Source: Candidatus Thiothrix putei
GTDB taxonomy: Bacteria; Pseudomonadota; Gammaproteobacteria; Thiotrichales; Thiotrichaceae
Direction of reading: 5' to 3'
Length of the DNA stretch: 64,000 bases
Assembly: GCA_029972225.1 (NCBI GenBank)
Contig: CP124756.1
Span: 1,842,001 to 1,906,000, forward strand
This document shows, piece after piece, positions 1,849 to 18,204 of the stretch. The number at the start of each line of letters is the position of its first letter. Position 1 is the stretch's first letter. The notes beneath the pieces were generated by a model, which was not told the DNA's origin, did not search any database, and saw nothing but the letters and a program-made list of their open reading frames with translations. The translations under genes and the position numbers were made by a program.

Positions 1849-3042
1849 ATGCGTATTGCAGTCATTTCCAATACCACGTGGTATCTCTATAACTTTCGTC
1901 TCAGCCACATGCTGGCTTATCAGCAGGCAGGGCATGAAGTCATCGCTATCGGCCCTGATGAGCCGCATTACATCAGCAAGATTGAAGCCGCTGGCATCCC
2001 GCACCATGTTTTTAATGTTTCGGGGGATGGCATTAACCCCGTGCGCGAATTGCAGTCGTTGTGGTCGTTGGTCAAAACGCTGAAACGGTTGCGTATTCAG
2101 GTGATTTTGAGCAACACCCCTAAAGGCAATATTTATGCTGCCGTTGCCGCCCGCTTGTTGGGGATTGCCATTATTCCCAATGTTTCTGGATTGGGGCATG
2201 TGTTTATTCATCCTTCTTGGCTTACCCATCTGGTTAAACTCTTTTACCGCATTGCGTTTGCCTACCCGCAGCATGTGATGTTCCAAAACCGTGATGACCA
2301 CGATTTTTTTATACAGCAACGCCTGATCCGCCCACAACAAGCCAAGTTGATTCCAGGATCAGGCATTGACTTACTGCGTTTTATCCCCCCTGCATCAACC
2401 ACAGAGCAGGGTAGCAAGGAAACGTCGGATAAATCCCTCACCTTTTTGCTGCCTGCCCGCTTATTGTGGGATAAGGGGGTCGGGGAATTTGTAGAAGCGG
2501 CGCGGCACATTCGGCAACGCTACCCACAGATGCGCTTCCAACTGTTAGGGTCAACCGATATTGCCAACCCCGCCGCTATCCCGCAGGCAACAGTGAAGCA
2601 GTGGCATCAGGAAGGGGTGGTGGAGTATCTGGGCAAAACGGACAACGTGATACCTTTTATCCAGCAGGCAGATTGTGTCGTTCTGCCATCCTATCGGGAA
2701 GGCACTCCCCGCAGTCTGTTGGAAGCCTCTTCGATGGGCAAGCCAATTATCACCACCAACACCGTGGGATGCCGCAATGTGGTCGAAGAGGGTATCACGG
2801 GCTACTTGTGCCGCTTACAAGATGCCAATGATCTGGCGCAAAAGATGCTACAACTGCTGTCATTGGGTACAGAACAACGCTTACAGATGGGCTTGGCGGG
2901 ACGGCGTAAAATGGAACGTGAATTCGATGAAAAAATCGTCATTGATACCTATCTGCAAACCATTCGTGATAAAACATACCGATTACGCAAACGTGATTTC
3001 ATTATGAATGGTTTGAAAAAACTAACGTTCTACACCAAATGA
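1849..3042 (+). CDS. GT4-family glycosyltransferase
   Basis: This 397-residue protein has a GT-B fold of the glycosyltransferase family 4 type. The N-terminal domain starts MRIAVISNTTWYLYNFR, and the C-terminal domain has the donor-site E-x7-E motif in SYREGTPRSLLEASSMGKP. It resembles PglA/capsular enzymes that add a sugar from a nucleotide donor to an undecaprenyl-linked glycan at the cytoplasmic membrane. A strong ribosome site (aggagg, 1835-1840) is 8 bases before the ATG at 1849; an ATG at 1844 is out of frame. The stop codon lies inside the first unit of a 24-bp tandem repeat. Neighbours place it in the EPS operon. Sugar specificity cannot be told. Confidence 0.9.
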   Translation: MRIAVISNTTWYLYNFRLSHMLAYQQAGHEVIAIGPDEPHYISKIEAAGIPHHVFNVSGDGINPVRELQSLWSLVKTLKRLRIQVILSNTPKGNIYAAVAARLLGIAIIPNVSGLGHVFIHPSWLTHLVKLFYRIAFAYPQHVMFQNRDDHDFFIQQRLIRPQQAKLIPGSGIDLLRFIPPASTTEQGSKETSDKSLTFLLPARLLWDKGVGEFVEAARHIRQRYPQMRFQLLGSTDIANPAAIPQATVKQWHQEGVVEYLGKTDNVIPFIQQADCVVLPSYREGTPRSLLEASSMGKPIITTNTVGCRNVVEEGITGYLCRLQDANDLAQKMLQLLSLGTEQRLQMGLAGRRKMEREFDEKIVIDTYLQTIRDKTYRLRKRDFIMNGLKKLTFYTK

Positions 3043-3070: not shown

Positions 3071-4125
3071 GCTCAATATGCGTTTCAGGGTCTTATCCCA
3101 ACAGCAGCGAAAGCAAGGACTGTAAGGCAGCTTGCCCCCGTTTCCTGATGTTGTGAAGAGACTCGAAGAATGCAAGGTAACACGGTAGCTTTTCTTGTGA
3201 GATCCCCCGATGAGGTCGTAACCATGAGCGTAACAGTGACCAAAAACCTTCCATCGTATTGACGTGGACTTCATGGAAACCGTCACCATCTTCGTCACGG
3301 GCATATTCGCCTGCGCCATGGTTGACGGTTTTGTGGGCATAGCCCCATTCTTCCAATCGGCTGTAAATGTTGTACTCATCGGTGTAGACCAGCGTGCCTG
3401 CTGCCACCGTTTCCACAATCAACGGCTTGATCGTCGTCTGTTTCACATTCGCCAGCATACGGATCACGACCTCCCCGGAACGCTGGATCATGCCGAAAAT
3501 GGGTGGTTTGTCCTTTTCCAGTGTCCCACGCCCCGGCGCACCTTTCAGGGCGCGGCGGCGACCTTCACGCCCAGCATCCGCGACGGCTTCGGGGTTTCCC
3601 TTGTGTCCAGCCTTGACATAAACCTCATCAAATTCAACATTCCCAAACAGGTTTACTGGCGTTTTTTTCTCGACACCACGCCGTAACTGTTCCGTCATCG
3701 CCTGAACATCATCCTTGTTCAACCCCAATTCGCGGGCGATTTGTTGGTTGGACAGGTTCAACGACATCAGGTACAGGCACAACACCCACACCTTCAGCGG
3801 CTGGTGGTGGCCTTCAAACACCGTGCCCGTCAGGTCATCAAAACGCTTTTGGCAATCCTTACACTGGTAACGCTGGCGTTCCTGCTGGGTGTCATCCTTG
3901 CCTCGACGGATAGTGTCCTGTGAACCGCAGTGCGGACAAATCACCCCATTAGGCCAACGCACGGAACGGACTTGCTCGAAACAGGCGGCATCACTGGTCA
4001 GGCTGGAAATACTGATGAGCGAGGTCATAAAGCCTCTCCTTGGCTATCGGAAATGACTAACTTTACCGCTATCCATCACGTTTGCAATGCCGGGGAAAAC
4101 AAGACCCTGAAACGCATATTGAGCC
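3070..4125 (-). mobile_element. IS1595-family insertion sequence, complete
   Basis: A 25-bp perfect inverted repeat bounds the element (3070-3094 and 4101-4125, beginning ggctcaatatgcgtttcagg). The 7-bp sequence atgatct is present on both outer sides (3063-3069 and 4126-4132), consistent with target duplication; the family usually makes 8 bp. It carries one transposase gene and separates the glycosyltransferase gene from the secreted-protein gene of the EPS operon. Confidence 0.9.
3093..4028 (-). CDS. IS1595-family transposase
   Basis: The 311-residue protein has an N-terminal zinc-ribbon pattern (CPHCGS near residue 35 and CKDC near 56). A DDE-type catalytic domain follows, including FDEVYVKAGHKGN and a later VYTDEYNIYSRL. 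A C-terminal NTMEGFWSLLRSWLR segment supplies the last acidic residue. This order is typical of ISXO2-like/IS1595 transposases. It fills the element from inverted repeat to inverted repeat and appears intact, so the element may be active. It is read against the EPS operon and may block or weaken downstream transcription. Confidence 0.92.
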   Translation of the reverse strand: MTSLISISSLTSDAACFEQVRSVRWPNGVICPHCGSQDTIRRGKDDTQQERQRYQCKDCQKRFDDLTGTVFEGHHQPLKVWVLCLYLMSLNLSNQQIARELGLNKDDVQAMTEQLRRGVEKKTPVNLFGNVEFDEVYVKAGHKGNPEAVADAGREGRRRALKGAPGRGTLEKDKPPIFGMIQRSGEVVIRMLANVKQTTIKPLIVETVAAGTLVYTDEYNIYSRLEEWGYAHKTVNHGAGEYARDEDGDGFHEVHVNTMEGFWSLLRSWLRPHRGISQEKLPCYLAFFESLHNIRKRGQAALQSLLSLLLG

Positions 4126-4150: not shown

Positions 4151-4726
4151 ATGACATGCCATAACCCCTTGAGCAAAGTAGTGCTTACCTTATCCTTAGC
4201 TGGCAGTTTGTTCTGCTCATCGGCAGTGTATGCGGCGGAAGATTTGCACCAGCCTGCCTTTAACGTGGCGCAGCAAGTGCTGGAGTGCATTGCTAAAGAA
4301 TATGCCTATGGTAATCAAGTCCCACAATTCCTTGCGGATATTGTACAAAACAAGATAGCGGAACATGGCACAGCCGCGAAGCTCACACTAGAACGGCTGG
4401 CAACACGGGTAGGGCGGGGTACATTGAACAATGTCCCCCATTTGCCGCCAGCATTGGCAGCATGGGCAGCCAAAGAAGCCGCCCATATTAATCGGGAAGG
4501 TGCGGAAATCATTATTGAAACCCGTAGCGATGTAGACTCCTGCACAGCTCCAGGGCTGTATGTGCCCGGTGGTGTAGCGGGTGTCGGTGCTGGGGCACTT
4601 GGCACAGTCGGCACTATCAACATGACCTATGTGTTAATCGGTGGCGCATTGGTTACAGCCGGGGTTTTGGGTGGTGCTAGTAATGGCAGTAGCAGCGGGG
4701 ATACGGGTGGTAATATCAGTCCATAA
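4151..4726 (+). CDS. Secreted protein of EPS locus with late hydrophobic segment
   Basis: The 191-residue product begins with a clear Sec signal peptide (LTLSLAGSLFCSSAVYA then AED). The middle is helical (about 25-125). A glycine-rich hydrophobic stretch follows at about 140-177 (NMTYVLIGGALVTAGVLGGA), and the protein ends in a Ser/Gly tail. Two cysteines lie in the mature part. The ribosome site aggagga (4136-4142) sits just inside the right flank of the IS1595 element. I do not recognise a named family. The layout recalls small periplasmic or outer-membrane proteins encoded in polysaccharide loci, and it resembles the protein at 54422-55036. There is no VPEP-type exosortase sorting signal. 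Confidence 0.75.
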   Translation: MTCHNPLSKVVLTLSLAGSLFCSSAVYAAEDLHQPAFNVAQQVLECIAKEYAYGNQVPQFLADIVQNKIAEHGTAAKLTLERLATRVGRGTLNNVPHLPPALAAWAAKEAAHINREGAEIIIETRSDVDSCTAPGLYVPGGVAGVGAGALGTVGTINMTYVLIGGALVTAGVLGGASNGSSSGDTGGNISP

Positions 4727-4747
4727 CACAGCACGGTATTGTTTATA

Positions 4748-7090
4748 ATGAAAAACCTCCCACAAAATAACGGGGTTCAGCCAAGGCAGGCATTGGCTGC
4801 CCAACCATCGCAGCCTGTTGCTTTTTCCACCTTACTGGCTGATGCTGCGGGACAAGATGACGCTGGCGGCATTGACCTGCGTGCCATCTGGTTAACGCTG
4901 AAACGCCACAAAATCACCATCCTGCTGGTGTTCTTGAGCGTTTTTATCATCAATGCCTTGGGCGCATTAGGCAAAACTCCCATTTATCAAGCGACTATCA
5001 CGCTAGAACTTCGCCCAGAAGAACAGCGGGTGTTGAATTTCGGGGTCGAAGCCCAAGGGATGGCCGATTACATGGCGGCCTCGCTGTTTTACCAAACCCA
5101 GTATGAATTGCTGAGAAGCCGGACACTGGCTGAGCAAGTCATTGACAGAATGGGGCTGGAAAGCCGCTTTGCACAGGCAAACGCCCCAGTTATTCCTGTC
5201 GCCCAGCCTTTTTATGCCGAAACCTTAGCCGCTGTGAAACAAACGCTGCGTTCATGGCGGGATGCGTTGCTACCGACAACGCCAGACGAGCCAAAGAATG
5301 CTGAGGTTGTCAATAACACAGAAAGCGAGGGGGAAACCGAAAATCCGGCAGTTTCCCGTTTCATGGGAAGCCGGAAGATTGAGCCTGTTGAGGAGTCACA
5401 AGTCGTCACGGTGACATACGACGATGCTGACCCCAAGTTGGCGGCAGCGATTGCCAATGGGATTGCTGACACTTATATCAACATGAGTCTGGAACGGCGC
5501 ACGGCTTCTACCCGCCATGCGGAAAAATTCCTGCAAGAGCAATTGGTTCAAGCCAAAAGCAAACTCGAAACGGCTGAAACTGAACTCGTACAATACGCAG
5601 AAAAGAAAGCCATCTATAATCTTGGCGACAAGCAACCCTTGATCGCCCAACAGCTTAACAGTGCCAACGAAGCCTTGATGGAAGCCCGCAAAGAGCGCAT
5701 TGCGGCTGAAAGCGCCTACCAACAAGCCCAGCTCAGCAGTGTGCAAACCAAGGCACAGACCAACCCCGCGCTTGATGCCCTCAAGCAATCCCTTACCAAA
5801 TTGCAAGTTGAGTATCAGGAAAAGTCCGGTATTTACGATGATGGCTACCCGGTCATGCAGGAACTGCGTAACCAGATGACCCTGCTGGAAAACAATATCC
5901 AGCAGGAAATCCAGTCAGAAACCCAAGTTGCCAGCACCACACTCAAAGCCAATTATCTGGCTGCAAAGCAAAAAGAAGACCAACTCCAAGCCGATGTCAA
6001 ACAATACAAGGTCGACTTGCTCAGCAACCAAAACAGCGGGATCGGTTACAACACCTTGCAGCGTGAAGTGGAAATCAGCCGGGGGCTGTATGAGGCACTG
6101 CTGCAACGGGTCAAGGAGGTCAGCGTGGCAGGGCTTGCCACCACCAGCAATGTGGCGGTCGTGGATTCCGCGTTAATCCCCTCCTCCCCTTACAAACCGG
6201 ACACCCGCAAGGACTTGTTAAGCGGAGCTTTGCTGGGGTTAGTCTTGGGGATCGCGGTGGCTTTTCTATGGGAATACTTGGATGACCGGGTGAAAGTGTT
6301 CGAGGAACTGGAACGCCACGTCGGCAACGTGCCATTATTGGGGATACTGCCTGCTCTGCACCGTAAGCAACTGGATGGGCACAACTATGCACTGTTGACT
6401 CAACAAAAACCCGCGTCCGCTGTCGCTGAAGCCAGCCGTTCCCTGTGTACCAACTTGATGCTGGCTACCCGTTCTGGTATGCCACGCCTCCTGAATATTA
6501 CCAGTACCGAAGCAGCAGAGGGGAAAACAGCAACCGCCATCAATCTCGCCACAGCCTTTGCCCAGACGGGGAAACGGGTGCTATTGATAGACGCTGACTT
6601 ACGCAAACCGACCATCCACAAACACTTAAAGATAGCGAATATTAAGGGCTTTTCCCACTACCTGATTGGGCAGGAAAACTTGCAGTCGTTAATCCAACCC
6701 TGCCTATTAGATGGGGTGGAAGTCATTACCGCAGGCCCTCCAGCCCCTAACCCTGTGGAATTGCTGCATAGCCTCCGTATGGCAGAGTTAAGGGCGTTTG
6801 CCTATGCGCCTGCTTGCCCGTTTGATGTGATTATTCTTGACTCACCCCCAGTATTGGGCTTGGCAGATGCACTCATCATAGGGCATAACACCCAAGCCAC
6901 CCTGATGGTCGTGGCGACCAAACAAGTACGGATGCGTAACCTCAAAACGGCTATCAATCGCTTGAATCAGGCACAAGCCAATGTCATTGGGATTACCATG
7001 AGTAAAAATCCCCAAGATTCGCATGATAGCTATCACTACCATTATGGCGATGCGGCATCACTGCCTCCAAAAGAAACAGTCAGCCGGTGA
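4748..7090 (+). CDS. Wzc-like polysaccharide co-polymerase with tyrosine autokinase
   Basis: This protein of about 780 residues controls chain length and export of the polysaccharide at the inner membrane. A Wzz domain with a first membrane segment (about 58-78) is followed by a long coiled-coil periplasmic region and a GNVR-type end before the second membrane segment (about 485-505). The cytoplasmic BY-kinase domain has Walker A (EAAEGKTATA, about 588), Walker A' (LLIDADLRKP, about 614) and Walker B (VIILDSPPVLG, about 697). A tyrosine-containing C-terminus (SYHYHYGD) is the likely autophosphorylation cluster. ATG 4748 was preferred to an in-frame TTG at 4739; neither has a clear ribosome site. 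It overlaps the next gene by 4 bases. Confidence 0.92.
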   Translation: MKNLPQNNGVQPRQALAAQPSQPVAFSTLLADAAGQDDAGGIDLRAIWLTLKRHKITILLVFLSVFIINALGALGKTPIYQATITLELRPEEQRVLNFGVEAQGMADYMAASLFYQTQYELLRSRTLAEQVIDRMGLESRFAQANAPVIPVAQPFYAETLAAVKQTLRSWRDALLPTTPDEPKNAEVVNNTESEGETENPAVSRFMGSRKIEPVEESQVVTVTYDDADPKLAAAIANGIADTYINMSLERRTASTRHAEKFLQEQLVQAKSKLETAETELVQYAEKKAIYNLGDKQPLIAQQLNSANEALMEARKERIAAESAYQQAQLSSVQTKAQTNPALDALKQSLTKLQVEYQEKSGIYDDGYPVMQELRNQMTLLENNIQQEIQSETQVASTTLKANYLAAKQKEDQLQADVKQYKVDLLSNQNSGIGYNTLQREVEISRGLYEALLQRVKEVSVAGLATTSNVAVVDSALIPSSPYKPDTRKDLLSGALLGLVLGIAVAFLWEYLDDRVKVFEELERHVGNVPLLGILPALHRKQLDGHNYALLTQQKPASAVAEASRSLCTNLMLATRSGMPRLLNITSTEAAEGKTATAINLATAFAQTGKRVLLIDADLRKPTIHKHLKIANIKGFSHYLIGQENLQSLIQPCLLDGVEVITAGPPAPNPVELLHSLRMAELRAFAYAPACPFDVIILDSPPVLGLADALIIGHNTQATLMVVATKQVRMRNLKTAINRLNQAQANVIGITMSKNPQDSHDSYHYHYGDAASLPPKETVSR

Positions 7091-8346
7091 TTTCCCCCAC
7101 CTTGTTGCTGCGCCGCCTGCTACTGGTGCTGCTAGTGGGAACTGCCTTGGTAATCAGCGCCAGCTACCGTACTGCCAAGGTCGGGCCGGAAGATTACCCC
7201 GATTCCGGTCGCCCACTCGCGCACAGTGGTATCGGTTGGCAAACACTCGATGCTCAGGACTGGTTGCAACGGGCACAACAAGCGGAAGTCAGCGGCGATT
7301 TGGCACAAGCACAAACCTTCGCACACAACGCGCTGGCCGTGGATGTCAGCAGCGGCAAGGCGATAGTGCGCCTTGCCAACCTTGCCAACCGTCAGGGGCA
7401 AATCCAACAAGCCCAAGCATTAGCGACCTATGCAGGGCAATTGGCAAAGGCACAAGACACGACACAAGTATACCTTGCTGCATTCTGGGGCAGCGTGGGG
7501 AATCTGCCTAAGCAACTGGCGGCGCTGGATGTGCTGATGACCCGCGATGGCTCCATGCAAGCCGCCTTTTTCCCTGTATTGCACGGGTGGTGGCTGAATG
7601 CCGCTACCACCCGCCCCTTATTTACCCCCCTGATGGCGAAACCGCCCGCGTGGTGGCCTGCTTTTTTCAGCCATATCTTGCAAGACTCGCAGACCCCGCC
7701 TGATGCTCTGGCAGCGTTATACCAGCAGCCATTAGTGGGCGGGTATCGCTTGCCGGAAACCCAAACGGCCCAATATATTCACTACCTGACCCAGCGGCAG
7801 CAATGGCGTGAAGCGCGGGAAGTGTGGCTGGAAAATCTGCCCGCAGACTACACGCCATTCAAGGGGTTGGTGTATGACGGGGGATTTGAAGGGGAGCGGC
7901 ACAATACCGGCTTCGACTGGTTTTTTATCCCGCACGAATTGCTCAGCATCAAACAGCAGGCAACGTTTGATACGCAAGGCGAGCACTCATTGCGTCTGAT
8001 CTTGCGGGATGCCACACACCTTAACGTCCAGCACGTATGGCAGCGGCTGGTATTACCCCCTGGGCAATACACTTGGCGTTTCCGTTACCGCATTGACCGG
8101 ATGAGTACCCTCAAAGGCTTGCAATGGCGGATACGCTGTGTAGCTGATGAGCAGCGGGTATTAGCAGAATCTGCTGTGTTACGCGATGTCACCCCGTGGA
8201 AGGCTTTGCAGGCTACCGTCAAGATTCCGGCGGATTGCCCGGTGCAATTATTGCGCCTCGAAGCCAGTAGCCCCCGTTTGCATGAGCAGGTGTTTGCTGG
8301 GGATATTTGGTTTGATGCGGTGGAGATCAGCCCTGATGCGCCTTAA
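7087..8346 (+). CDS. Membrane-anchored TPR-like protein of EPS operon
   Basis: The gene starts with GTG overlapping the stop of the co-polymerase gene (GTGA), which suggests translational coupling. The 419-residue product has an N-terminal membrane anchor (LLLRRLLLVLLVGTALVIS). Helical repeats resembling tetratricopeptide repeats follow at about 57-130 (WLQRAQQAEVSGDLAQAQTF). The C-terminal part, about 265-419, looks like a beta-sandwich carbohydrate-binding fold, but no motif confirms this. Similar TPR proteins accompany Wzy-type polymerases in exopolysaccharide clusters. A scaffold or polymerase-partner role in the periplasm is inferred from context only. Confidence 0.75.
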   Translation: MISPTLLLRRLLLVLLVGTALVISASYRTAKVGPEDYPDSGRPLAHSGIGWQTLDAQDWLQRAQQAEVSGDLAQAQTFAHNALAVDVSSGKAIVRLANLANRQGQIQQAQALATYAGQLAKAQDTTQVYLAAFWGSVGNLPKQLAALDVLMTRDGSMQAAFFPVLHGWWLNAATTRPLFTPLMAKPPAWWPAFFSHILQDSQTPPDALAALYQQPLVGGYRLPETQTAQYIHYLTQRQQWREAREVWLENLPADYTPFKGLVYDGGFEGERHNTGFDWFFIPHELLSIKQQATFDTQGEHSLRLILRDATHLNVQHVWQRLVLPPGQYTWRFRYRIDRMSTLKGLQWRIRCVADEQRVLAESAVLRDVTPWKALQATVKIPADCPVQLLRLEASSPRLHEQVFAGDIWFDAVEISPDAP

Positions 8347-9700
8347 TGCCCTGTTTGGTGTGAGTCTTGCTCTGTTGTGTTTTGCGCCGCTGATGCGCAG
8401 TGGGCGGCTAATGTCTGCCCTGTTGGTGCTGGAACTGTTGGGCGGGCTGCTGTTGCTGCTGGCATTGTGGACACCTGCACCGCCGCGCCGTATCCCCTTG
8501 CTGCTGAAGGTGTTGCTGGTGAGCATGGTGCTGCTGCCATTGGTGTATTTGCTACCGATTCCGGCAGAGTGGTGGCGGCAATTGCCGGGGCGGGCGTTAT
8601 ACGCGCAAAGTCTGGATATTTTGGAACAGGCGGGCAAGTCGCCTTACCTTACCCTGTCGTTGCTGCCACAACGCACGCTGTCGTCGTTGCTGGCACTGTT
8701 GCCGGTGTTGGGGATGCTGTTGGCGGTCTTGCTATTGCCGGTGCAGCGGGTGAAATGGCTGGTGTATGCGTTCCTGTTGATGGCGGTGGTGCAGGCGTTG
8801 CTGGGGCTGTTCCAGTATGGCACTGGGGCGGCATGGGCATTCAGCGGGGGGGTGGAAGCCGCCCGTTATCTGGCAGTGGGGACGTATGCCAACTCCGACC
8901 ATTTTGCCGCGTTGATGGTGATGGCGTTGCCGATGGCGTTGGCGTTGACCGCGTATTATGCCCAGTCTGGCGACCCTAGGCGGGAAGGAGGCTTGAGTCG
9001 GTTGTCAGGTATGCACCGTGCGGGGGCTTACTTTTTATTGGGGCTATTGCTGCTGTTGGCGGGGGTGTTTGCGCGTTCCCGTACCGGGGTTGTGCTGGTG
9101 ATGTTGGCTATCTTGCTGTTGGCGGGGGTGTTTTCTCGGCATTTGGGTGGGCGGCGTTCGGTTGGCATCGGTACCGTAACGCTGGTGGTTGCTGGCGCGG
9201 TGGCGGCAGATATTGGGCTAATCCCGGTACTCAACCGCTTTGCTGTTGACCCGTTAACCGATGTGCGGTGGCATACCTTTGCCGTCACTTGGCAGGCGAT
9301 CCGTGAATTTTTCCCGCTGGGTAGTGGCCCTGGCACGTTTCAGGCGGTGTTTTTAGGGTTTCAACCACCAGATTTGCCGCAGTTTATTAACCATGTGCAT
9401 AACGATTATCTGGAATGGCTGTTTGAAACCGGGATGCTGGGTGTAGTGTTGTTGTCACTGGCGCTACTGGTGTATGGCTATGGCTGGTGGCGACTGCGTG
9501 GGCGGGCGTGGGATGCCTTCCGCTTTATGCAAACGGCGGCAGGCTTGGGCGTATTGCTGCTGATGCTGCATGGTTTGCTGGATTTTGTGTTCCACACACC
9601 TGCCAATGCGGTGTTTTTCGCATTTTTGTCAGGGGTATTTTTGCACTTGGGCGGGGCAGATTGTGCCGTAACCAACAGATCAACTAAACTCAATGGTTGA
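8336..9700 (+). CDS. O-antigen ligase / Wzy-type polysaccharide polymerase
   Basis: The 454-residue integral membrane protein has about 10-12 hydrophobic segments. It carries the O-antigen-ligase domain signature: a long periplasmic loop with R-x-G-containing sequence, then HVHNDYLEWLFETGMLG before the last helices. It polymerises repeat units or ligates glycan to an acceptor at the periplasmic face. The frame is open upstream to 8186, but ATG 8336 is chosen because it gives the usual 11-base overlap with the TPR gene and a normal N-terminus (MRLNALFGVSLALL). Codon use is rich in CTG/TTG, as expected for a hydrophobic protein. Confidence 0.88.
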   Translation: MRLNALFGVSLALLCFAPLMRSGRLMSALLVLELLGGLLLLLALWTPAPPRRIPLLLKVLLVSMVLLPLVYLLPIPAEWWRQLPGRALYAQSLDILEQAGKSPYLTLSLLPQRTLSSLLALLPVLGMLLAVLLLPVQRVKWLVYAFLLMAVVQALLGLFQYGTGAAWAFSGGVEAARYLAVGTYANSDHFAALMVMALPMALALTAYYAQSGDPRREGGLSRLSGMHRAGAYFLLGLLLLLAGVFARSRTGVVLVMLAILLLAGVFSRHLGGRRSVGIGTVTLVVAGAVAADIGLIPVLNRFAVDPLTDVRWHTFAVTWQAIREFFPLGSGPGTFQAVFLGFQPPDLPQFINHVHNDYLEWLFETGMLGVVLLSLALLVYGYGWWRLRGRAWDAFRFMQTAAGLGVLLLMLHGLLDFVFHTPANAVFFAFLSGVFLHLGGADCAVTNRSTKLNG

Positions 9701-9737
9701 CAATACATTTCTCATTAATAACCGTAGGAGATTCGTC

Positions 9738-10001
9738 ATGACCGATAAATTTGACCCCCAATCCCCGGAAGCCCAAGCCTTGGCGGCGGATGCACTGGCT
9801 CGCCGCGAGTTCCTGAAAAAGCTGGGTAAATACGCGGCTGTTACCAGTGTCAGCACAGCGACCCTGCTGACCGCACAGACCGCCACAGCGGCTTCTGCCG
9901 CATACTGCGCAAAGGCTAGTTGCCTCCCCTTTATCGGCTCCTGTAGTAAGGGTTCTTACGCTGGGTGCAGGTGTACGGTGTTTGGTTGCGTCCCAGACTA
10001 G
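9738..10001 (+). CDS. Tat-signal peptide precursor with six-cysteine, cyclotide-like C-terminus
   Basis: The 87-residue product starts at ATG 9738, with ribosome site taggag at 9723-9728; an ORF start at 9693 is upstream of that site. An acidic leader (1-20) is followed by a twin-arginine motif (ARREFLKKLGK, Arg22-Arg23), a hydrophobic Ala/Thr stretch and an apparent AxA cleavage site near residue 54. The mature C-terminus has cysteines at 57, 62, 69, 77, 79 and 84, spacing 4-6-7-1-4, ending GCRCTVFGCVPD. This resembles the cystine-knot spacing of bracelet cyclotides (3-4-7-1-4), a family known from plants. The PqqD-HprK fusion gene begins 8 bases later. Export and disulfide folding are inferred; I know of no named family for it. 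Confidence 0.72.
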   Translation: MTDKFDPQSPEAQALAADALARREFLKKLGKYAAVTSVSTATLLTAQTATAASAAYCAKASCLPFIGSCSKGSYAGCRCTVFGCVPD

Positions 10002-10009
10002 TTCAGCAT

Positions 10010-11146
10010 ATGAACACTGCCAGCCTATTTGTGCAATCACTGTGTCACGGCGATACCCAATTCCTGTTCCAGCGGATGGGGGATGCGCTGCACGTTCCCG
10101 ATAAGGCAACCTTCATGATCTGGGAGGCGTTGCAGGCGGGTATCGCTGCCAGCGACATTGCGGCGGCGCTGGCTGAGGCAAACCCCGCCGCAGACTGCCA
10201 ACGCGATGTGGCGGCGTTGCAAGCGCAATGGGTGCAACTCGGTTTGCTGGGTGTTGCCCAGCCCGCTACGGATACCCCCCACTTCAGCCATTACTTCCAA
10301 CCCGCCCTTGACACGGTGTGCGTGACCACCAACCAGCAGGCGCTGCATGATTACCTGCAAACACTCTACCCCGGTGTTGTGCCGCCGCCGCCCAGTGTCG
10401 GAACAGCGCATTTGCACATTGCGTTTGACCCGGCTCAAGCCACTTATACCCTGTGGCAAGACGGGCAGCATCAGGCAGATTGCCCCAGCTTTGACGATGC
10501 GGTCATCACGGCGGTCTTTTTGATAGGCGAAATCGCTACCCACGAAGAACCGCGCCTGCTGGTGTGCCATGCTGCTGCGGTGCAATGCCAAGGTGCAGCG
10601 GTGCTGATGCCTGCTGCTGCGGGTAAAGGCAAAAGCACCCTCACCGCGATGCTGTTGCAGCACGGTTGCCAACTCATCAACGATGACATCGTGCCGGTGA
10701 ACCATGACGGCAGCATTACCGCGATCCAGCAACCGCTGAAAATCAAATCCGGTGCATGGGAGGTCTTGAGCAAGCACTACCCAGCCTTGCACACTTACCC
10801 TGCCCATACCCGCAGTGACGGGCAACAGATGAAGCATCTCCCGTTATCTAACGGGCGGTGCGCCGCCGGGGAACGCCTGTGGGTTAGCCTGATGGTCGTT
10901 CCCGAATACCGGCAGGGTCAGGCAGGTATCACCACCCAAGCCCTGAGCGAGACCGAAAAGCTGCAACATTTCATCACTGCCCAGCCATTTTTCACCCACC
11001 CGCTGACCCGACCTTACCTGCAACGGGTGCTGAGCTGGTTGGCAGCCATCCCAGCGTACCGTGTGGTCTACAGTGATGGTGCGGCAGCCGTTGCCCTGAT
11101 CGAAACCCTTATTCTGCAAACTCACCTTCCGAAGGACACCGCATGA
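10010..11146 (+). CDS. PqqD-like domain fused to HPr kinase-like domain
   Basis: The 378-residue protein has two parts. Residues 1-82 match PqqD-like peptide-recognition domains (FMIWEALQAG, then DVAALQAQWVQLGLL). The rest resembles HprK-related P-loop kinases, with Walker A PAAAGKGKSTLTAML at about 199-213 and an acidic LINDDIVPV about 20 residues later. PqqD domains bind leader regions of ribosomal peptides. HprK-like kinases phosphorylate peptide or protein hydroxyls; one such kinase acts on the lasso peptide paeninodin. The 8-bp gap after the cysteine-rich peptide gene and the 4-base overlap with the nucleotidyltransferase gene suggest one functional unit. That the cysteine peptide is its substrate is inference. 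Confidence 0.85.
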   Translation: MNTASLFVQSLCHGDTQFLFQRMGDALHVPDKATFMIWEALQAGIAASDIAAALAEANPAADCQRDVAALQAQWVQLGLLGVAQPATDTPHFSHYFQPALDTVCVTTNQQALHDYLQTLYPGVVPPPPSVGTAHLHIAFDPAQATYTLWQDGQHQADCPSFDDAVITAVFLIGEIATHEEPRLLVCHAAAVQCQGAAVLMPAAAGKGKSTLTAMLLQHGCQLINDDIVPVNHDGSITAIQQPLKIKSGAWEVLSKHYPALHTYPAHTRSDGQQMKHLPLSNGRCAAGERLWVSLMVVPEYRQGQAGITTQALSETEKLQHFITAQPFFTHPLTRPYLQRVLSWLAAIPAYRVVYSDGAAAVALIETLILQTHLPKDTA

Positions 11147-12318
11147 CCACTGCCATCCACACCCGCTTGCGCACGCATGACAGCTTCCACCCGCTGCTGC
11201 ATAACACTTTCGGCTTTGTGTTGTCTGCCCTCAGTCTGAGCCGCACCGCTGACGATCTGCGCCATGATTGCGACCTTGCCAGCCTCAACTGGATGTTCAC
11301 TTATGCTCTGGCGGATGAAACGTTGGTTGCGACGTTGTTGTACTCGCGCATCCGCGAAAAGCAGCTTGAGGCGTATTGCCCCGCCGATTTCATCGCTGCC
11401 TTGCAGGTTATCCATGCAGCCAATGCCGAACGCAACGCCCAGCATCGGCAAATCTTGCTGCAAACGGTGGCTATCCTCAATCAAGCGGCGATTACCCCTT
11501 GCCTGCTCAAAGGCGCTCATGCCTTGATGGGGTTGATGCCGGATGCGGAATCACGCCTGATCCGTGACATTGATTTGCTGGTTGCCAAAGAGCAAGCGCA
11601 AACCGCCAAGCGAGCCTTGTTGCAAGCCGGTTATTATCAGGATAATCAGTTAGCGCAAGCGGCGGAAGACGATGAGGCGCATCACCAGCTTAAACCGCTT
11701 TACCACCCCAGTGGGCGTGGTTATGTGGAAATTCACCGCCACCCCAATTTTGCCCTGCTATACCCGAATCTGATGGATGCGGTATTTAACCCTGACCAGC
11801 TTAATCTTGCCGAGCGTGATGGGGTGCGCTTTTACTACAATCATCCTTGGCAATTGCTGCTGTACAATCAGATTCACCATTTCCACAGCGATCTTGACGC
11901 GACAGCCAGACCTGATTTGCGTCAATTGGCGGAACAATCTGCCTTATTGCACCGCCTTGCGGGAGATACGGAACTGGCAAGCCGCTTCGCTGCTGTCCTC
12001 GGCAAACAGGCGACTCAAGCCCACCTGCAATTTACCTTGTTGGCGGAGCTGTTTGGCGATAGCCCACCTGCTGCCTTGATGCCGCCGCTGCCAGGTCAAG
12101 CCGCTGCCCACTTGCAGGATATAGTGGGGAAAATGCTCGGAGACCCTGCTTCACTCAAACGCCGCCGTTGGGTGGCGTTTGCCTCGTTGTTTAGCTTCGC
12201 CGCCAAGCAATTGGTTAACCCCACCTTCCTCAAACATAACCTCACCAAAGCAGAGTGGTATCGGAACCTGATCCCCAAAGTTCTCAGTGCCGTCGTTGGA
12301 GGACGTAAGAAAGTATGA
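11143..12318 (+). CDS. Nucleotidyltransferase-family protein linked to PqqD-HprK
   Basis: The 391-residue protein carries the nucleotidyltransferase-fold pattern of the family found with HprK-related/PqqD cassettes: LLKGAHALMGL, then the metal-binding RDIDLLV about 40 residues later, followed by a helical domain. The paired Asp residues in D-x-D (RDIDLL, about residue 142) are intact. It overlaps both neighbours by ATGA junctions. Related proteins are encoded in some lasso-peptide clusters next to the kinase. It might adenylylate, or extend a phosphate on, the same product. Target and donor nucleotide are not evident from sequence. Confidence 0.82.
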   Translation: MTTAIHTRLRTHDSFHPLLHNTFGFVLSALSLSRTADDLRHDCDLASLNWMFTYALADETLVATLLYSRIREKQLEAYCPADFIAALQVIHAANAERNAQHRQILLQTVAILNQAAITPCLLKGAHALMGLMPDAESRLIRDIDLLVAKEQAQTAKRALLQAGYYQDNQLAQAAEDDEAHHQLKPLYHPSGRGYVEIHRHPNFALLYPNLMDAVFNPDQLNLAERDGVRFYYNHPWQLLLYNQIHHFHSDLDATARPDLRQLAEQSALLHRLAGDTELASRFAAVLGKQATQAHLQFTLLAELFGDSPPAALMPPLPGQAAAHLQDIVGKMLGDPASLKRRRWVAFASLFSFAAKQLVNPTFLKHNLTKAEWYRNLIPKVLSAVVGGRKKV

Positions 12319-13019
12319 ACAGCAACAAGCATACACCCCGTGTGGCATTGGCTATCGCCATCCTCACCCTCTCAGGCACTGGATGCAGCAGTAGCCCCGC
12401 CATCAGCACCACCCCTTCAGCCACGATTAGCGGGCTGGATGCGACGACCACCCAAGCGGAAGATTACCGTATTGGCGATTCTGACCTGCTCGACATCAAG
12501 GTATTCCGGGCGGATGAACTTTCCCGCGAAGTGCGGGTGGATGCCGACGGCAATATTACACTGCCATTGCTGGGGAAAGTTGCTGTCAACGGCTTAACCC
12601 AGAGTGCCACCGAAACCAAACTGGCCGAACTGTTTGTCAGCAAGCGGCTGCTCAAAAATCCGCAAATAACCGTCTTCATAAAAGAACGCACCTCACAGCG
12701 GATCACGCTCGAAGGCGAAGTCAGCAAACCCGGCATTTACCCCATTAGTGGTCAGGTGACGGTATTACAAGCGATGGCGTTGGGTGGTGGCCCTAGCGCT
12801 CTAGCGGCTACGGATAAAGTGGTTCTGTTCCGCCGCGACGGGGAACAAAGCAAGGGTTATTTAATTGATTTAGGTGCCATTCGGGGCGGCAAGCTGGCTG
12901 ACCCCTATGTACGCAACGATGACCGCATTGTGGTACACCGTTCCGACAGCCGCTATTGGTTACGCGAGGCGGGTACACTGCTGAACCCGCTTACGACTTT
13001 GAACGGTTTGGTGCGTTAA
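12315..13019 (+). CDS. Wza/EpsE-type polysaccharide export lipoprotein
   Basis: The 234-residue protein has a lipoprotein signal with the acylated cysteine at residue 24 (LSGTGC). A polysaccharide-export domain follows (YRIGDSDLLDIKVF, VDADGNITLPLLGKV), then one SLBB domain (ITLEGEVSKPGIYPI). It is shorter than E. coli Wza (about 380 residues), as usual for EpsE/GumB-like exporters. It forms the periplasmic/outer-membrane exit for the polymer and works with the co-polymerase at 4748. It is the last gene of the operon and is joined by a 4-base overlap. Confidence 0.92.
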   Translation: MNSNKHTPRVALAIAILTLSGTGCSSSPAISTTPSATISGLDATTTQAEDYRIGDSDLLDIKVFRADELSREVRVDADGNITLPLLGKVAVNGLTQSATETKLAELFVSKRLLKNPQITVFIKERTSQRITLEGEVSKPGIYPISGQVTVLQAMALGGGPSALAATDKVVLFRRDGEQSKGYLIDLGAIRGGKLADPYVRNDDRIVVHRSDSRYWLREAGTLLNPLTTLNGLVR

Positions 13020-15579: not shown

Positions 15580-16690
15580 TTGCAGATTCCTCAAAGGTCT
15601 GAAAGTTGAGAGTCAGCAAGGAGTCCAAGGCTTTTTTATGCGTAGTGTGGGTTTGTGCCAAACAGGCATCAATGGCCTGCGCAAACGCGGTAAAGTTTTC
15701 ATGGTAACGTGAATACAGGCATTCCTTCTTCACAAACTTCCAGAGGCGCTCAATCAGGTTCAGGTTGGGGGAATAAGCGGGTAGGAACAACAGTTCGATC
15801 CCGAGTGTTTGGGCGAATGTTTGTACCAGGCTACAGCGCTGGTAACGGGCATTGTCCATCACCAAGGTCACCGGGACATCCAGGGCCAATGCCTTGATTT
15901 GCCGAAGCAACTGACAAACACTTTGGGAGTTGATGTAACTGTCATTGGTCACGGTGACCAGTTCATGGGTGACTGCATTCAACGCACCGAGGACATTGTA
16001 GCGCTGGCGTCCGGCAGGGGCGCGGATGAACAGCCGGGTGAAACACCACAGGAACCCCAGAAACGGGGCCAGGACAAAATGGGCGGCGTCGACAAAGAAA
16101 ACGGCGCGTTTTCCGGCCTTGGCCTCCTCAAGACGCGGCTCCAGCTCTTTTTTTAAAAGTCTCCTGGGCAGCAGGGTCGGCTTTCGCCGGTATCATCCCC
16201 ACCTTCCTGACGGACAAACCCAAGTCATGCAGGAATAGCCGCACGGCTTCCCGCTTGAGTTCAAGGCCGGTTAAGCGCTGTATATCAGCGATCGCCTGAC
16301 TGATCCGGGTCGGTGGATGCTTCTCAAAATGTTTCTTCAGGGGACTCACGGAAAGGTTCCAACCGGCGGGTTGGGCGACGGAAATCCAGTTGTTCCAAGG
16401 CAGCGATCCCACCTTGTTGGTAACGTTTCAAATAACGGGTGACCGTCGTTGAACTCACCTGTGCCAGCCGTTCAATGTCCCCATGCGCCATTCCCTGGCT
16501 TTTTAGCCACAACACTTCCATCCGTTGGCGGACGCGAGGGTGGGCATGGCGGTAACGCCCCTCATTCAAGGCGGTTTGATCGGATTCGCTGAAGTCTATC
16601 TGGATCATGGAAAGGACGACCGGTTGCCAATAACAGCCGTACTTTGCTTGAGGGCTTCTCATTATTCAACAGCTATTCACGGGCAAAGTA
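15562..16690 (-). mobile_element. IS630-family element, type A copy 1
   Basis: The element begins and ends with short inverted tips (tactt...) and is flanked by duplicated TA (15560-15561, 16691-16692), as expected for IS630/Tc1-mariner elements. It is 1129 bp; the two other copies (29897-31024, 60831-61958) are 1128 bp. The extra base is an A at 16344 that breaks the first transposase frame in this copy. Confidence 0.92.
15566..16608 (-). pseudogene. IS630 transposase (type A copy 1), frameshifted
   Basis: Two breaks separate the reading frame. The extra A at 16344 splits the N-terminal part; the other two copies lack it. The run of seven A/T near 16150 separates the helix-turn-helix half from the catalytic half in all copies. 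The C-terminal 138 residues (15566-15982) hold the DDE core: [11 protein letters not shown] and [18 protein letters not shown]. The start at 16608 is taken at [15 protein letters not shown], matching the other IS630 type. This copy probably encodes no full-length enzyme. Confidence 0.82.
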
Positions 16691-18204
16691 TAGCTGAATT
16701 GAAACGCCAATTGGCGTGGTTCAGGCAACATGTCTTTGGCAGCAAATCGGAAAAGCGTCCGGTTGAGATACCGGTGGCGCAGTTGCCGTTGTTTGCCCCC
16801 GCAGTCGCCCCAGTTGCCGCACCCGAGGGTGAAAGCATTACCGTCACCTACCAACGCGGCAAAGCCCCCAAGCTGCGCCCCGATGACTGCGTGAATGACA
16901 GCGGGTTACGCTTTACCGCCGATGTCCCGGTCAAGGTGATTCACCTCACCCCGCCGGAACTTCAGGGGGAAGAGGCTGACCAGTATGAGGTGATCGGCAC
17001 CCAGGTGACTCATCGGGTGGCGCAACGCCCTGCCAGCTACCTGATCCTGCAATACGAGCGCCCCGTCATCAAACGCAAGGGCAGTGCTTCGGCTTCGCTC
17101 AGCAACCCACCGCTTCCCAGCCCTGCACCCGCCAACGTGCTGGAACGTAGTGTCACCGATGTCAGCTTTTTGGTGGGGATGTTGGTGGACAAGTTCCAGT
17201 ACCACCTGCCGTTGTACCGCCAGCACCAACGCCTGACCCAAGCGGGGATCACCCTCAGCCGCACGACGCTGACCAATGCGGTGAAACGTGCCATCGACCT
17301 GCTCAAACCCATTGCCGAAGCGCAACTCGCCAGTGTACTGCAAAGCAAGCTGCTGGCGATGGACGAAACCCCCATCAAAGCCAGCCCCGCAGGCAACGGC
17401 AAGATGAAGCAAGGCTACTTCTGGCCGCTGTACGGGGATCAGGACGAAATCGTCTTCACCTTCTCCGCCAGCCGTGGGCGGCAACACATTGAAAAGACCC
17501 TTCGCCAACAGTTCAGCGGCACACTGCTCAGCGACGGTTACCGTGCTTATGCCAGTTACGTCAACGCCAATGACAAGATTACCCATGCCCAATGCTGGGT
17601 ACACAGCCGTCGCACCTTCATTGCCGCCGAAACTACTGAACCACAAGCAGTACGCCAAGCCCTTGACACTATCGCGGCACTCTATCAGCACGAAGCCCAG
17701 ATTAACGAGAAAAAACTCGACGGGGAAGCCAAACGTACCTACCGCCTCACCCACAGCAAGCCGTTGGTCGACCAGTTCTTTGAATGGTGCCAAACCCAAT
17801 TACAACGTACCGATTTAGTCCCCTCCAACCCGCTGACCAAAGCCCTTGGTTATGTCATCCGCCGCGAACACGAACTGCGCGTGTTTCTGGAAGATCCCGA
17901 CGTGCCAATGGATACCAACCACATCGAACGCGCCCTGCGGCCCATCCCCATGGGCAGGAAAAACTGGTTGTTCTGCTGGACAGAACTCGGCGCGGAACAC
18001 GTGGGCATCATCCAAAGCCTGATCACCACCTGCCGCCTGCATGACATTAACCCGTATGTCTATCTGATGGATGTTCTGTTGCGCGTTAGTGAGCATCCCG
18101 CTTCTCAGGTGCAAGACCTTACGCCAAGATGTTGGAAACAACGGTTTGCGGATAAGCCATTGCGCTCGGATTTGTTTGCGGATATCAACGACGGGCTAGA
18201 ATGA
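16525..18204 (+). CDS. Chimeric IS66 transposase TnpC restarted inside IS630
   Basis: From 16693 the frame encodes TnpC from residue 37 on: AELKRQLAWFRQHVFGSKSE, a zinc-binding-like region, then the DDE domain with LLAMDETPIKASPAG, LLSDGYRAYASY, and the C-terminal DTNHIERALRPIPMGRKNW. Only the first 36 residues are separated off. The same frame is open back into the IS630 to an ATG at 16525, adding 56 residues read antisense to the IS630 transposase. The 559-residue ORF is conserved without a break in the second copy (59317-60996). Whether the chimera is translated and active is unknown, but the composite element has moved. Confidence 0.8.
   Translation: MADARVGMAVTPLIQGGLIGFAEVYLDHGKDDRLPITAVLCLRASHYSTAIHGQSIAELKRQLAWFRQHVFGSKSEKRPVEIPVAQLPLFAPAVAPVAAPEGESITVTYQRGKAPKLRPDDCVNDSGLRFTADVPVKVIHLTPPELQGEEADQYEVIGTQVTHRVAQRPASYLILQYERPVIKRKGSASASLSNPPLPSPAPANVLERSVTDVSFLVGMLVDKFQYHLPLYRQHQRLTQAGITLSRTTLTNAVKRAIDLLKPIAEAQLASVLQSKLLAMDETPIKASPAGNGKMKQGYFWPLYGDQDEIVFTFSASRGRQHIEKTLRQQFSGTLLSDGYRAYASYVNANDKITHAQCWVHSRRTFIAAETTEPQAVRQALDTIAALYQHEAQINEKKLDGEAKRTYRLTHSKPLVDQFFEWCQTQLQRTDLVPSNPLTKALGYVIRREHELRVFLEDPDVPMDTNHIERALRPIPMGRKNWLFCWTELGAEHVGIIQSLITTCRLHDINPYVYLMDVLLRVSEHPASQVQDLTPRCWKQRFADKPLRSDLFADINDGLE

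What the first reader, a model, noticed from the sequence alone, without database searches (positions are those of the whole stretch)
9738..10001. Cyclotide-like six-cysteine peptide with a twin-arginine signal
Seen: an 87-residue precursor with RR-x-F-L-K, an AxA-like site and a short mature part with cysteine spacing 4-6-7-1-4, ending GCRCTVFGCVPD. Known: bracelet cyclotides have 3-4-7-1-4 spacing, a GC-x-C segment and end in Asn or Asp where cyclisation happens. Inference: this may be a bacterial cystine-knot peptide, exported folded through Tat (unusual for small disulfide peptides) and perhaps modified by the neighbouring PqqD-HprK and nucleotidyltransferase. A convergent small disulfide-rich or metal-binding peptide is the main alternative.
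Basis: partly seen in the sequence, partly recalled or inferred. Interest (0 to 1): 0.9.

Follow-up and report, generated by a model that had tools for sequence, protein, structure and literature searches.

The report
Tat-leader peptide with dedicated kinase
A small bacterial peptide that looks at first like a plant cyclotide is more likely the precursor of a chemically modified, exported peptide whose family keeps a conserved leader but a freely varying tail, beside an enzyme that joins a leader-binding domain to a kinase.

Summary
The 87-residue ORF, Tat-like leader and 4-6-7-1-4 cysteines are real. The cyclotide reading fails: of 32 relatives compiled (this one included), 24 have no cysteine in the tail, 7 have two, only this one six. 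What is conserved is the leader: [RK]R-x-F-L-K-x-x-G-[KR]-[FY]-A-x-x-T-P-P…A-x-A, then usually Ser. In 398 genomes of its phylum, the 10 with a strong leader match are exactly the 10 best matches to the neighbouring PqqD-HprK protein. That protein family has an N-terminal RiPP recognition element related to lasso TbiB1/TfuB1 and to LppB of the Bacillota linear polyphosphorylated peptides (LPPs), and a C-terminal HPr-kinase domain. A PF14907 nucleotidyltransferase follows. In one relative the RRE-kinase is fused to a prolyl-hydroxylase-like oxygenase beside a proline-rich tail. Best reading: an LPP-like RiPP. The RRE holds the leader, the kinase phosphorylates the Ser beside the cleavage site, the nucleotidyltransferase elaborates it, Tat probably exports it. 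Chemistry and export are inferred, not shown. It fails LPP's defining genes (SpI, discrete RRE, exporter): a new variant.

The parts
9726..9730 (+). ribosome-binding site AGGAG of the peptide gene
   Evidence: sequence
9738..10001 (+). 87-residue precursor peptide gene
   Evidence: leader family
9738..9890 (+). conserved leader, residues 1-51: Tat-like RREFLKK, family motif GKYxxxT, AxA (ATA)
   Evidence: alignment A7, column table, Tat controls
9891..9998 (+). hypervariable core, residues 52-87, six Cys (4-6-7-1-4)
   Evidence: no PDB sequence match at E<=10; no Cys in 24 of 32 tails
9894..9896 (+). Ser53, second residue after the predicted cleavage site: candidate phosphorylation site (inferred)
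   Evidence: Ser within 4 residues of the rule-assigned site in 29 of 32 members; LPP phosphosite is core Ser3 (PMC13381572)
10010..11146 (+). RRE(PqqD)-HprK fusion, 378 aa (probable start 10010; the mechanical ORF starts at 9965)
10031..10249 (+). RRE (PqqD-like) domain, about residues 8-80, three strands and three helices
   Evidence: family profile matches TbiB1 5v1u E 1.1e-7, TfuB1 6jx3 4.2e-6, LppB 9x8z 4.2e-5; model pLDDT 81-91 per block from residue 11; Pfam PqqD on the window protein alone 20.3 bits, under its cut-off 23.4
10559..11125 (+). HPr-kinase-like domain, about residues 184-372; H187, G205, G207, K208, T210, D225, K246 invariant in 18 sequences
11143..12318 (+). NTP_transf_5 (PF14907) nucleotidyltransferase; the only match to this family in the genome
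12315..13019 (+). Wza/EpsE-like polysaccharide export protein (context)
4739..7090 (+). Wzc-like chain-length/tyrosine autokinase (context)
8186..9700 (+). Wzy/O-antigen-ligase-like protein (context)

Best explanation
The gene encodes the precursor of an LPP-like RiPP. Shown by sequence: a conserved leader with a Tat-type signal plus a family-specific motif; a hypervariable core; strong genomic pairing with a fusion of an RRE to an HPr-type kinase; a PF14907 nucleotidyltransferase next to the kinase in most loci read. Inferred: the RRE domain docks the leader and so presents the peptide to the fused kinase; the kinase phosphorylates (perhaps repeatedly) the Ser just after the A-x-A site (Ser53 here), as LppK does to core Ser3 of LPPs; the nucleotidyltransferase adds a sugar or nucleotide to that phosphate, as PsmN of pseudomycoidin appears to; Tat exports the modified precursor and housekeeping signal peptidase I cleaves it; the six-Cys core of this member may form disulfides in the periplasm. 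Its place inside an exopolysaccharide locus suggests a role at the cell surface or in its matrix.
For: Class sample of 369 genomes: the 5 with kinase profile E<1e-40 are the 5 with leader E<1e-7; two of them (G000, G136) were in both query alignments, three in neither. Phylum sample of 398: the 10 with leader E<1e-8 are the 10 best kinase matches, E<1e-54 (hypergeometric 4e-20 if genomes were independent); nine were not in the leader query; G727 was in the kinase query. The kinase family's N-terminal domain matches RREs: TbiB1 1.1e-7, TfuB1 4.2e-6, LppB 4.2e-5; its kinase domain matches HprK 3tqf 3.8e-6. AlphaFold2 model pLDDT 88.3. 10 of 10 kinase-adjacent ORFs given, 2 of 2 and 1 of 1 are PF14907. 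Fusions: hydroxylase-RRE-kinase-like directly after a Pro-rich core, glycosyltransferase-RRE-kinase in the same genome, HprK-NTP_transf_5 in G596. The leader is more than a Tat signal: K or R at +8 in 18 of 22 members against 0 of 12 TIGR01409 matches of this genome, 8 of them over the cut-off. Experimental precedent for kinase, variable C-termini and polysaccharide loci: PMC13381572; for kinase and nucleotidyltransferase on lasso peptides: PMC9266682, PMC8498205 (passages).
Against: No product, phosphorylation or export has been measured. The window leader has TSV where most members have TPP; only 6 of 32 leaders hold a YxxPx[LVIFAM] string like the one lasso/LPP RREs bind. On the window protein alone, Pfam PqqD (20.3 bits) and Hpr_kinase_C (24.7) are under their cut-offs; each matches 11 of 18 family members at E<=0.01. 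TIGR01409 does not list this leader at E<=1 in its genome, and 2 of 22 members have KR, not RR. Three of 32 tails lack Ser near the rule-assigned site; the rule misplaced several sites, and the P value printed treats related sequences as independent. G034 and Methylosinus have the kinase with no peptide seen in the stretch read; in G774 and G455 the nearest leader found is 62 and 52 kb from the kinase. No PF14907 gene was seen directly beside the kinase in G053, G034 or Methylosinus. The hydroxylase-fused kinase of G302 has a degenerate P-loop. In the LPP study, deleting lppN changed nothing in the test host.
Confidence: 0.66

Rival explanations
1. Cyclotide-like cystine-knot peptide: a folded, possibly head-to-tail cyclic three-disulfide peptide is the conserved product.
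For: Six Cys, x7-x1-x4 spacing in the last three loops, GCRC segment, terminal Asp; all 8 Cys-bearing tails have even Cys numbers.
Confidence: 0.05
2. Lasso peptide: the RRE, kinase and nucleotidyltransferase are the accessory set of a paeninodin-type lasso cluster.
For: RRE related to lasso B1 proteins; kinase and nucleotidyltransferase are accessory genes of some lasso clusters, and kinase-bearing lasso clusters are reported from Proteobacteria too; an asparagine-synthase-type protein lies at 75-1823.
Against: That protein scores 501 bits to the XrtA exopolysaccharide amidotransferase model (below its cut-off 816.9), 414 to asparagine synthase (above cut-off 267) and only 171 to the lasso cyclase model (cut-off 525); it ends about 8 kb before the peptide with a transposase-like ORF between; among the ORFs scanned around the G005 system no such protein was found, one neighbour being PhoD; no B2-type protease was recognised among the ORFs scanned; tails such as SVPPL or poly-Lys/Arg look unsuited to a lasso ring.
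Confidence: 0.05
3. The peptide is simply a small Tat-exported protein; the kinase acts on something else (for example a polysaccharide-synthesis protein) and the two are only co-regulated.
For: Tat-like signal and AxA site; exopolysaccharide genes on both sides; no modification shown.
Against: Pairing persists in loci where the neighbours read are not polysaccharide genes, such as G005, G023 and G136; the kinase carries an RRE, a leader-binding domain; the leader has a conserved K/R that this genome's Tat signals lack.
Confidence: 0.14
4. A leader-guided modified peptide that stays in the cell or membrane: the RR-x-F-L-K motif is part of the RRE-binding site, and there is no Tat export.
For: TIGR01409 misses the leader in its genome and matches only 2 of 10 members, best E 0.041; KR members exist; the hydrophobic segment is at the low end of this genome's Tat signals (1.31 against 1.27-2.31).
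Against: RR in 20 of 22 and frequent A-x-A sites; TatC and signal peptidase I present; even Cys counts suggest an oxidising compartment (inference).
Confidence: 0.1

Closest known systems
Linear polyphosphorylated peptides (LPPs) of Bacillota (PMC13381572, Nat Commun 2026; abstract, sections 6, 7, 12, 35 and found passages seen)
   Same: RRE plus HprK-like kinase plus NTP transferase; conserved leader with highly variable C-terminus; set in polysaccharide loci; in LPPs the phosphorylated Ser is core residue 3, here a Ser lies within four residues of the rule-assigned site in 29 of 32 members.
   Different: Here the RRE is fused to the kinase; no SpI gene or MsbA-like exporter in the locus; leader is Tat-like with a canonical AxA site, not YxxPxVLxHQxIxFETxxS; named hosts are Pseudomonadota, whereas that paper calls LPPs and paeninodins restricted to the Bacillota; cores can carry Cys.
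Phosphorylated/glycosylated lasso peptides (paeninodin, pseudomycoidin; PMC9266682 and PMC8498205, passages)
   Same: HprK-type kinase phosphorylating Ser (also reported for proteobacterial lasso clusters), nucleotidyltransferase linked to hexose addition, RRE.
   Different: No lasso-type macrolactam cyclase or B2 protease recognised; in those lasso peptides the modified Ser is the C-terminal one.
TIGR04352 HprK-related kinase A (NCBIfam)
   Same: Kinase half matches with 68.9 bits.
   Different: Far below its 200-bit cut-off; the match does not include the RRE.
Bracelet cyclotides
   Same: Six Cys, C-x-C and last-loop spacing, terminal Asp.
   Different: Cys not conserved in the family; loops 1-2 differ; bacterial precursor with RRE-kinase partner.

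Membership tests
LPP (linear polyphosphorylated peptide) RiPPs | HprK-like kinase in the cluster | tested here: met
   family profile and fold; window protein alone is under the Pfam and NCBIfam cut-offs
LPP (linear polyphosphorylated peptide) RiPPs | NTP transferase in the cluster | tested here: met
   PF14907 92.6 bits over cut-off 31.2; 10 of 10 kinase-adjacent ORFs given
LPP (linear polyphosphorylated peptide) RiPPs | discrete RRE | tested here: not met
   RRE present but fused to the kinase
LPP (linear polyphosphorylated peptide) RiPPs | archaeal-type SpI peptidase in the cluster | tested here: not met
   no such match among the 8 proteins of 4151-13019 scanned; the genome's Peptidase_S26 matches lie outside the window
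LPP (linear polyphosphorylated peptide) RiPPs | MsbA-like exporter in the cluster | tested here: not met
   none among the 8 proteins; a MacAB-like set at 18.7-21.8 kb lies beyond transposase-like ORFs
LPP (linear polyphosphorylated peptide) RiPPs | conserved leader with variable C-terminus | tested here: met
LPP (linear polyphosphorylated peptide) RiPPs | leader motif YxxPxVLxHQxIxFETxxS | tested here: not met
   a YxxP-type string in 6 of 32, not in the window member
LPP (linear polyphosphorylated peptide) RiPPs | polyphosphorylated Ser near the core N-terminus | not testable with these tools
   a Ser is present in the right place; chemistry untested
Lasso peptides | macrolactam cyclase (C protein) | tested here: not met
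   75-1823 scores 171 bits against cut-off 525 of NF033535; other asparagine-synthase matches of the genome were not examined
Lasso peptides | B1-type RRE | tested here: met
   family profile matches TbiB1 E 1.1e-7; fused, not discrete
Lasso peptides | B2 leader protease | tested here: not met
   none recognised among the neighbouring ORFs scanned; not searched genome-wide
Cyclotides | six conserved Cys with bracelet spacing 3-4-7-1-4 | tested here: not met
   4-6-7-1-4 here; no Cys in 24 of 32 tails
Cyclotides | cystine knot I-IV, II-V, III-VI | tested here: inconclusive
   core pLDDT about 48-55
Cyclotides | conserved Asn/Asp at the cyclisation site | tested here: not met
   2 of 32 members listed end so (window Asp, G611a Asn)
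Tat substrates | RR-x-F-L-K signal, hydrophobic segment, AxA | tested here: inconclusive
   motif met, TatC present, but TIGR01409 does not list the leader at E<=1

The most novel reading that the evidence does not exclude
A class of RiPPs in which a Tat signal doubles as the RRE docking leader, and the RRE is a swappable adaptor carried on kinase, hydroxylase-kinase or glycosyltransferase-kinase fusions. The modified, sometimes disulfide-bonded peptide is exported by Tat and joined through its phosphoserine near the new N-terminus to exopolysaccharide or other surface material.
Probability: 0.15. Interest if true: 0.85.

Novelty: new variant of a known kind. Interest (0 to 1): 0.6.

Why it matters
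If right, a RiPP type whose discoverers call it restricted to the Bacillota has a counterpart elsewhere, with a different export route (Tat and signal peptidase I) and a one-protein RRE-kinase. That gives a simple system for testing what phosphopeptides in polysaccharide loci do, which the LPP authors state is unknown. The hydroxylase-RRE-kinase fusion beside a proline-rich core suggests that further chemistries can be mined by following RRE fusions. It also shows how a cyclotide-like cysteine pattern can mislead when only one member is seen.

Tried and rejected
Cyclotide/cystine-knot reading: rejected on family evidence. Core against PDB sequences: no match at E<=10. Structure of the peptide: low confidence, no use. 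Families on the window peptide: only weak matches, none over its cut-off (PADLOC none at E<=0.01). NCBIfam on 10 members: TIGR04117 (radical-SAM target peptides) matched 3, best E 0.036; TIGR02811 matched 2, best 0.00056; taken as shared leader style. Named-genome scan with an HprK pair gave two loci of one MAG, one with a leader-like peptide. Plasmid search: 21 records, 4 regions opened, 3 with a leader peptide. Lasso reading: considered because of the amidotransferase at 75-1823, rejected. Promoter and terminator scan of 9600-10120: nothing. Literature: searches listed no paper that I recognised as describing this family; most subscription papers are not held.

Weak points kept in view. The 32 peptides are 18 of the 20 places with leader E<1e-8 (two of G611 had no locus and were not read) plus 14 found otherwise; several starts are internal Met codons chosen by eye. 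One search used 22 of the 32, ten near-duplicates dropped by eye. G506's ORF is in neither count. Of 23 genomes with leader E<=1e-3, 13 are weaker than 1e-5; of these I read only G580 and G506; 9 of the other 11 lie in frames of 250 codons or more and are probably ordinary Tat proteins. Of the 17 genomes with a kinase match, I read seven, three of them chosen because a leader match lay beside the kinase, so that six of these seven have the peptide is not an unbiased rate; the class and phylum samples are the fair tests. Transposase-like ORFs in the window are named by eye; the call meant to scan them failed.

Full report
What is there. The ORF at 9738-10001 (+) is as described: 87 residues, RREFLKK, ATA|A and a 36-residue tail with six cysteines spaced 4-6-7-1-4. 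AGGAG precedes its ATG and it ends 8 bases before the next gene. As DNA it occurs once in the 4.28-Mb genome. Downstream lie a PqqD-HprK fusion (10010-11146), a PF14907 nucleotidyltransferase (11143-12318) and a Wza-like export protein (12315-13019); upstream are Wzc-like, TPR and Wzy-like proteins and, beyond a transposase-like ORF at 3093-4028 (named by eye), an amidotransferase and a glycosyltransferase. The peptide system thus sits inside an exopolysaccharide locus. The named records that hold the family are Leisingera, Ensifer and Methylobacterium plasmids and an Oceanospirillales MAG.

The leader is conserved, the tail is not. Searching 144 relatives with the peptide gave a clear match outside its own genome only in one genome of the same genus (G005, E 1.2e-8), covering residues 7-53. 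That homologue is 69 residues, has no cysteine, and lies just upstream of a PqqD-HprK homologue 46% identical to the window's. Weak matches in G023, G039, G053 and G136 proved to be the same kind of gene beside the same kind of enzyme. Of 17 of 144 genomes with a kinase match I read seven (window, G005, G023, G034, G039, G053, G136); six have the leader peptide and G034 shows none of 45 residues or more upstream. G023, G039 and G136 were read because a leader match lay there, so this is not an unbiased rate.

Wider samples. In 369 genomes of the class, the 5 with kinase profile E<1e-40 are the 5 with leader E<1e-7; G000 and G136 were in both queries, G255, G266 and G302 in neither. In 398 genomes of the phylum, 72 have a kinase match at 1e-20 or better, most of them to the kinase half alone; the 10 best (E<1e-54) are the same 10 genomes that have leader E<1e-8, nine of them not in the leader alignment, though G727 was in the kinase alignment. 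The next two full-length kinases also have a candidate: G654 has an unscored leader-like ORF directly upstream and G580 a weak one 1.4 kb away on the same contig. In the 10, the nearest leader found is adjacent in seven (window included), 1.1 kb away in G582, 52 kb in G455 and 62 kb in G774. Four genomes of one genus have two to five leader matches each. Relatedness among genomes makes the hypergeometric values too small, but the pairing is plain. Three of four plasmid regions opened, of 21 records matched, show the same pairing, with tails as different as poly-Lys/Arg and Gly/Ser-rich; in Ensifer the peptide follows the nucleotidyltransferase.

Cysteines. Of 32 peptides compiled, 24 tails have no Cys, 7 have two, one (the window) has six. 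So no cystine knot is conserved. All 8 Cys-bearing tails have an even number, which fits disulfides formed after export, though the 8 include related pairs.

The leader. Among 22 non-redundant members: RR in 20, second R in 22, L at +3 in 17, G at +7 in 21, K/R at +8 in 18, A at +10 in 18, T at +13 in 17, P at +14 in 15 and at +15 in 13. The 12 TIGR01409 matches of this genome, 8 of them over the cut-off, share RR and mostly F-L but have K/R at +8 in 0 of 12 (read). The leader is therefore Tat-like plus something else. In 6 of 32 members that something contains a YxxPx[LVIFAM] string, close to the [Y/W]xxPx[L/V/I/F/A] motif that lasso RREs bind (PMC13381572); the window's own leader has TSV in that place. 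TatC and signal peptidase I are encoded in the genome. TIGR01409 does not list this leader at E<=1, so Tat export is likely but untested.

The enzyme. A profile of 18 RRE-kinases matches, over the N-terminal 80 to 90 positions, TbiB1 (5v1u, E 1.1e-7), TfuB1 (6jx3, 4.2e-6) and 9x8z (4.2e-5), and over the C-terminal half HPr kinases (3tqf 3.8e-6, 1ko7 3.7e-5, 1jb1 8.3e-5). 9X8Z is the LppB-leader complex (data availability section of PMC13381572). On the window protein alone Pfam PqqD and Hpr_kinase_C are under their cut-offs; each matches 11 of 18 members at E<=0.01. H187, G205, G207, K208, T210, D225 and K246 are invariant in the 18. The AlphaFold2 model has pLDDT 88.3 and an N-terminal three-strand, three-helix domain; its best PDB matches are PEP carboxykinases and then HprK/P, which share a fold by general knowledge. 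Ten of ten kinase-adjacent ORFs, two more and one are PF14907. I saw no such gene directly beside the kinase in G053, G034 or Methylosinus.

Fusions that tie the enzymes to the peptide. In G302 the ORF directly after a Pro-rich peptide (tail APPAPTPTPTSTPAP...) is a 2OG-Fe(II) oxygenase (PF13640, E 2e-10; PDB matches to PKHD-type and prolyl 4-hydroxylases, best E 1.2e-7) fused to a PqqD/RRE domain and a kinase-like domain (profile match) with a degenerate P-loop. The same genome has a glycosyltransferase-RRE-kinase fusion. In G596 an HprK-like half and a PF14907 half form one protein. A hydroxylase on the RRE next to a proline-rich core is what a leader-guided modification system predicts.

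Candidate site. In 29 of 32 members a Ser lies within four residues after a rule-assigned cleavage site, against 11.5 expected from tail composition. The rule misplaced the site in several members and the sequences are related, so the P value printed there should not be used. In most members from outside the window's class the string is A-[IV]-A-x-S-G. In LPPs the kinase adds phosphates to core Ser3, just after leader cleavage. I propose Ser53 for the window peptide. In pseudomycoidin the nucleotidyltransferase is linked to hexose addition on the phospho-Ser (passages); in the LPP study deletion of lppN changed nothing in the heterologous host, so this step is the least certain.

Comparison. 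It works like an LPP but fails three of its defining features (discrete RRE, SpI peptidase, exporter) and its leader motif. The LPP authors call LPPs and paeninodins restricted to the Bacillota; kinase-bearing lasso clusters of Proteobacteria are, however, already reported (PMC8498205, passages). It does not look like a lasso cluster: the amidotransferase at 75-1823 fits exopolysaccharide or asparagine-synthase models far better than the lasso cyclase model, and none was found among the ORFs scanned around the G005 system. I recognised no paper on this family in eight library searches; most subscription papers are not held, so this is weak evidence of novelty.

Verdict. New variant of a known kind, moderate to high interest, with the chemistry still to be shown.

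Noticed in passing
window 75-1823 and 1849-3042: XrtA/asparagine-synthase-type amidotransferase and a GT4 glycosyltransferase, probably the front part of the same exopolysaccharide locus, separated from it by a transposase-like ORF at 3093-4028 (named by eye).
   Followed up: partly
L112:2714-4546 (G302): Prolyl-hydroxylase-like oxygenase fused to an RRE and a kinase-like domain with a degenerate P-loop, next to a proline-rich leader peptide.
   Followed up: partly
L113:728-2656 (G302): Glycosyltransferase family 2 fused to an RRE and an HprK-like kinase.
   Followed up: partly
L162:1261-3381 (G596): HprK-like kinase and NTP_transf_5 fused in one 706-residue protein.
   Followed up: partly
L055:3285-4072 (G136): Between peptide and RRE-kinase lie a 71-residue ORF resembling the start of the RRE-kinase (by eye) and two small other ORFs, as if the locus had been duplicated and interrupted.
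   Followed up: no
L050:9143-15076 (G005), L051:8693-9577, L055:4776-5501, L118:1-4702: Several loci of the family sit beside secreted or surface-type proteins (lamin-tail/PKD, ASH-like, Ig-like).
   Followed up: partly
L115 (Oceanospirillales MAG QIKV01000051): Two HprK-like genes, the start of an asparagine-synthase-like gene and an ABC transporter (all by eye from translations), possibly a lasso peptide cluster.
   Followed up: no
window 16525-18204 and 59317-60996: Two ORFs of identical length (559 aa), transposase-like by eye, may be copies of one element; identity was not checked.
   Followed up: no
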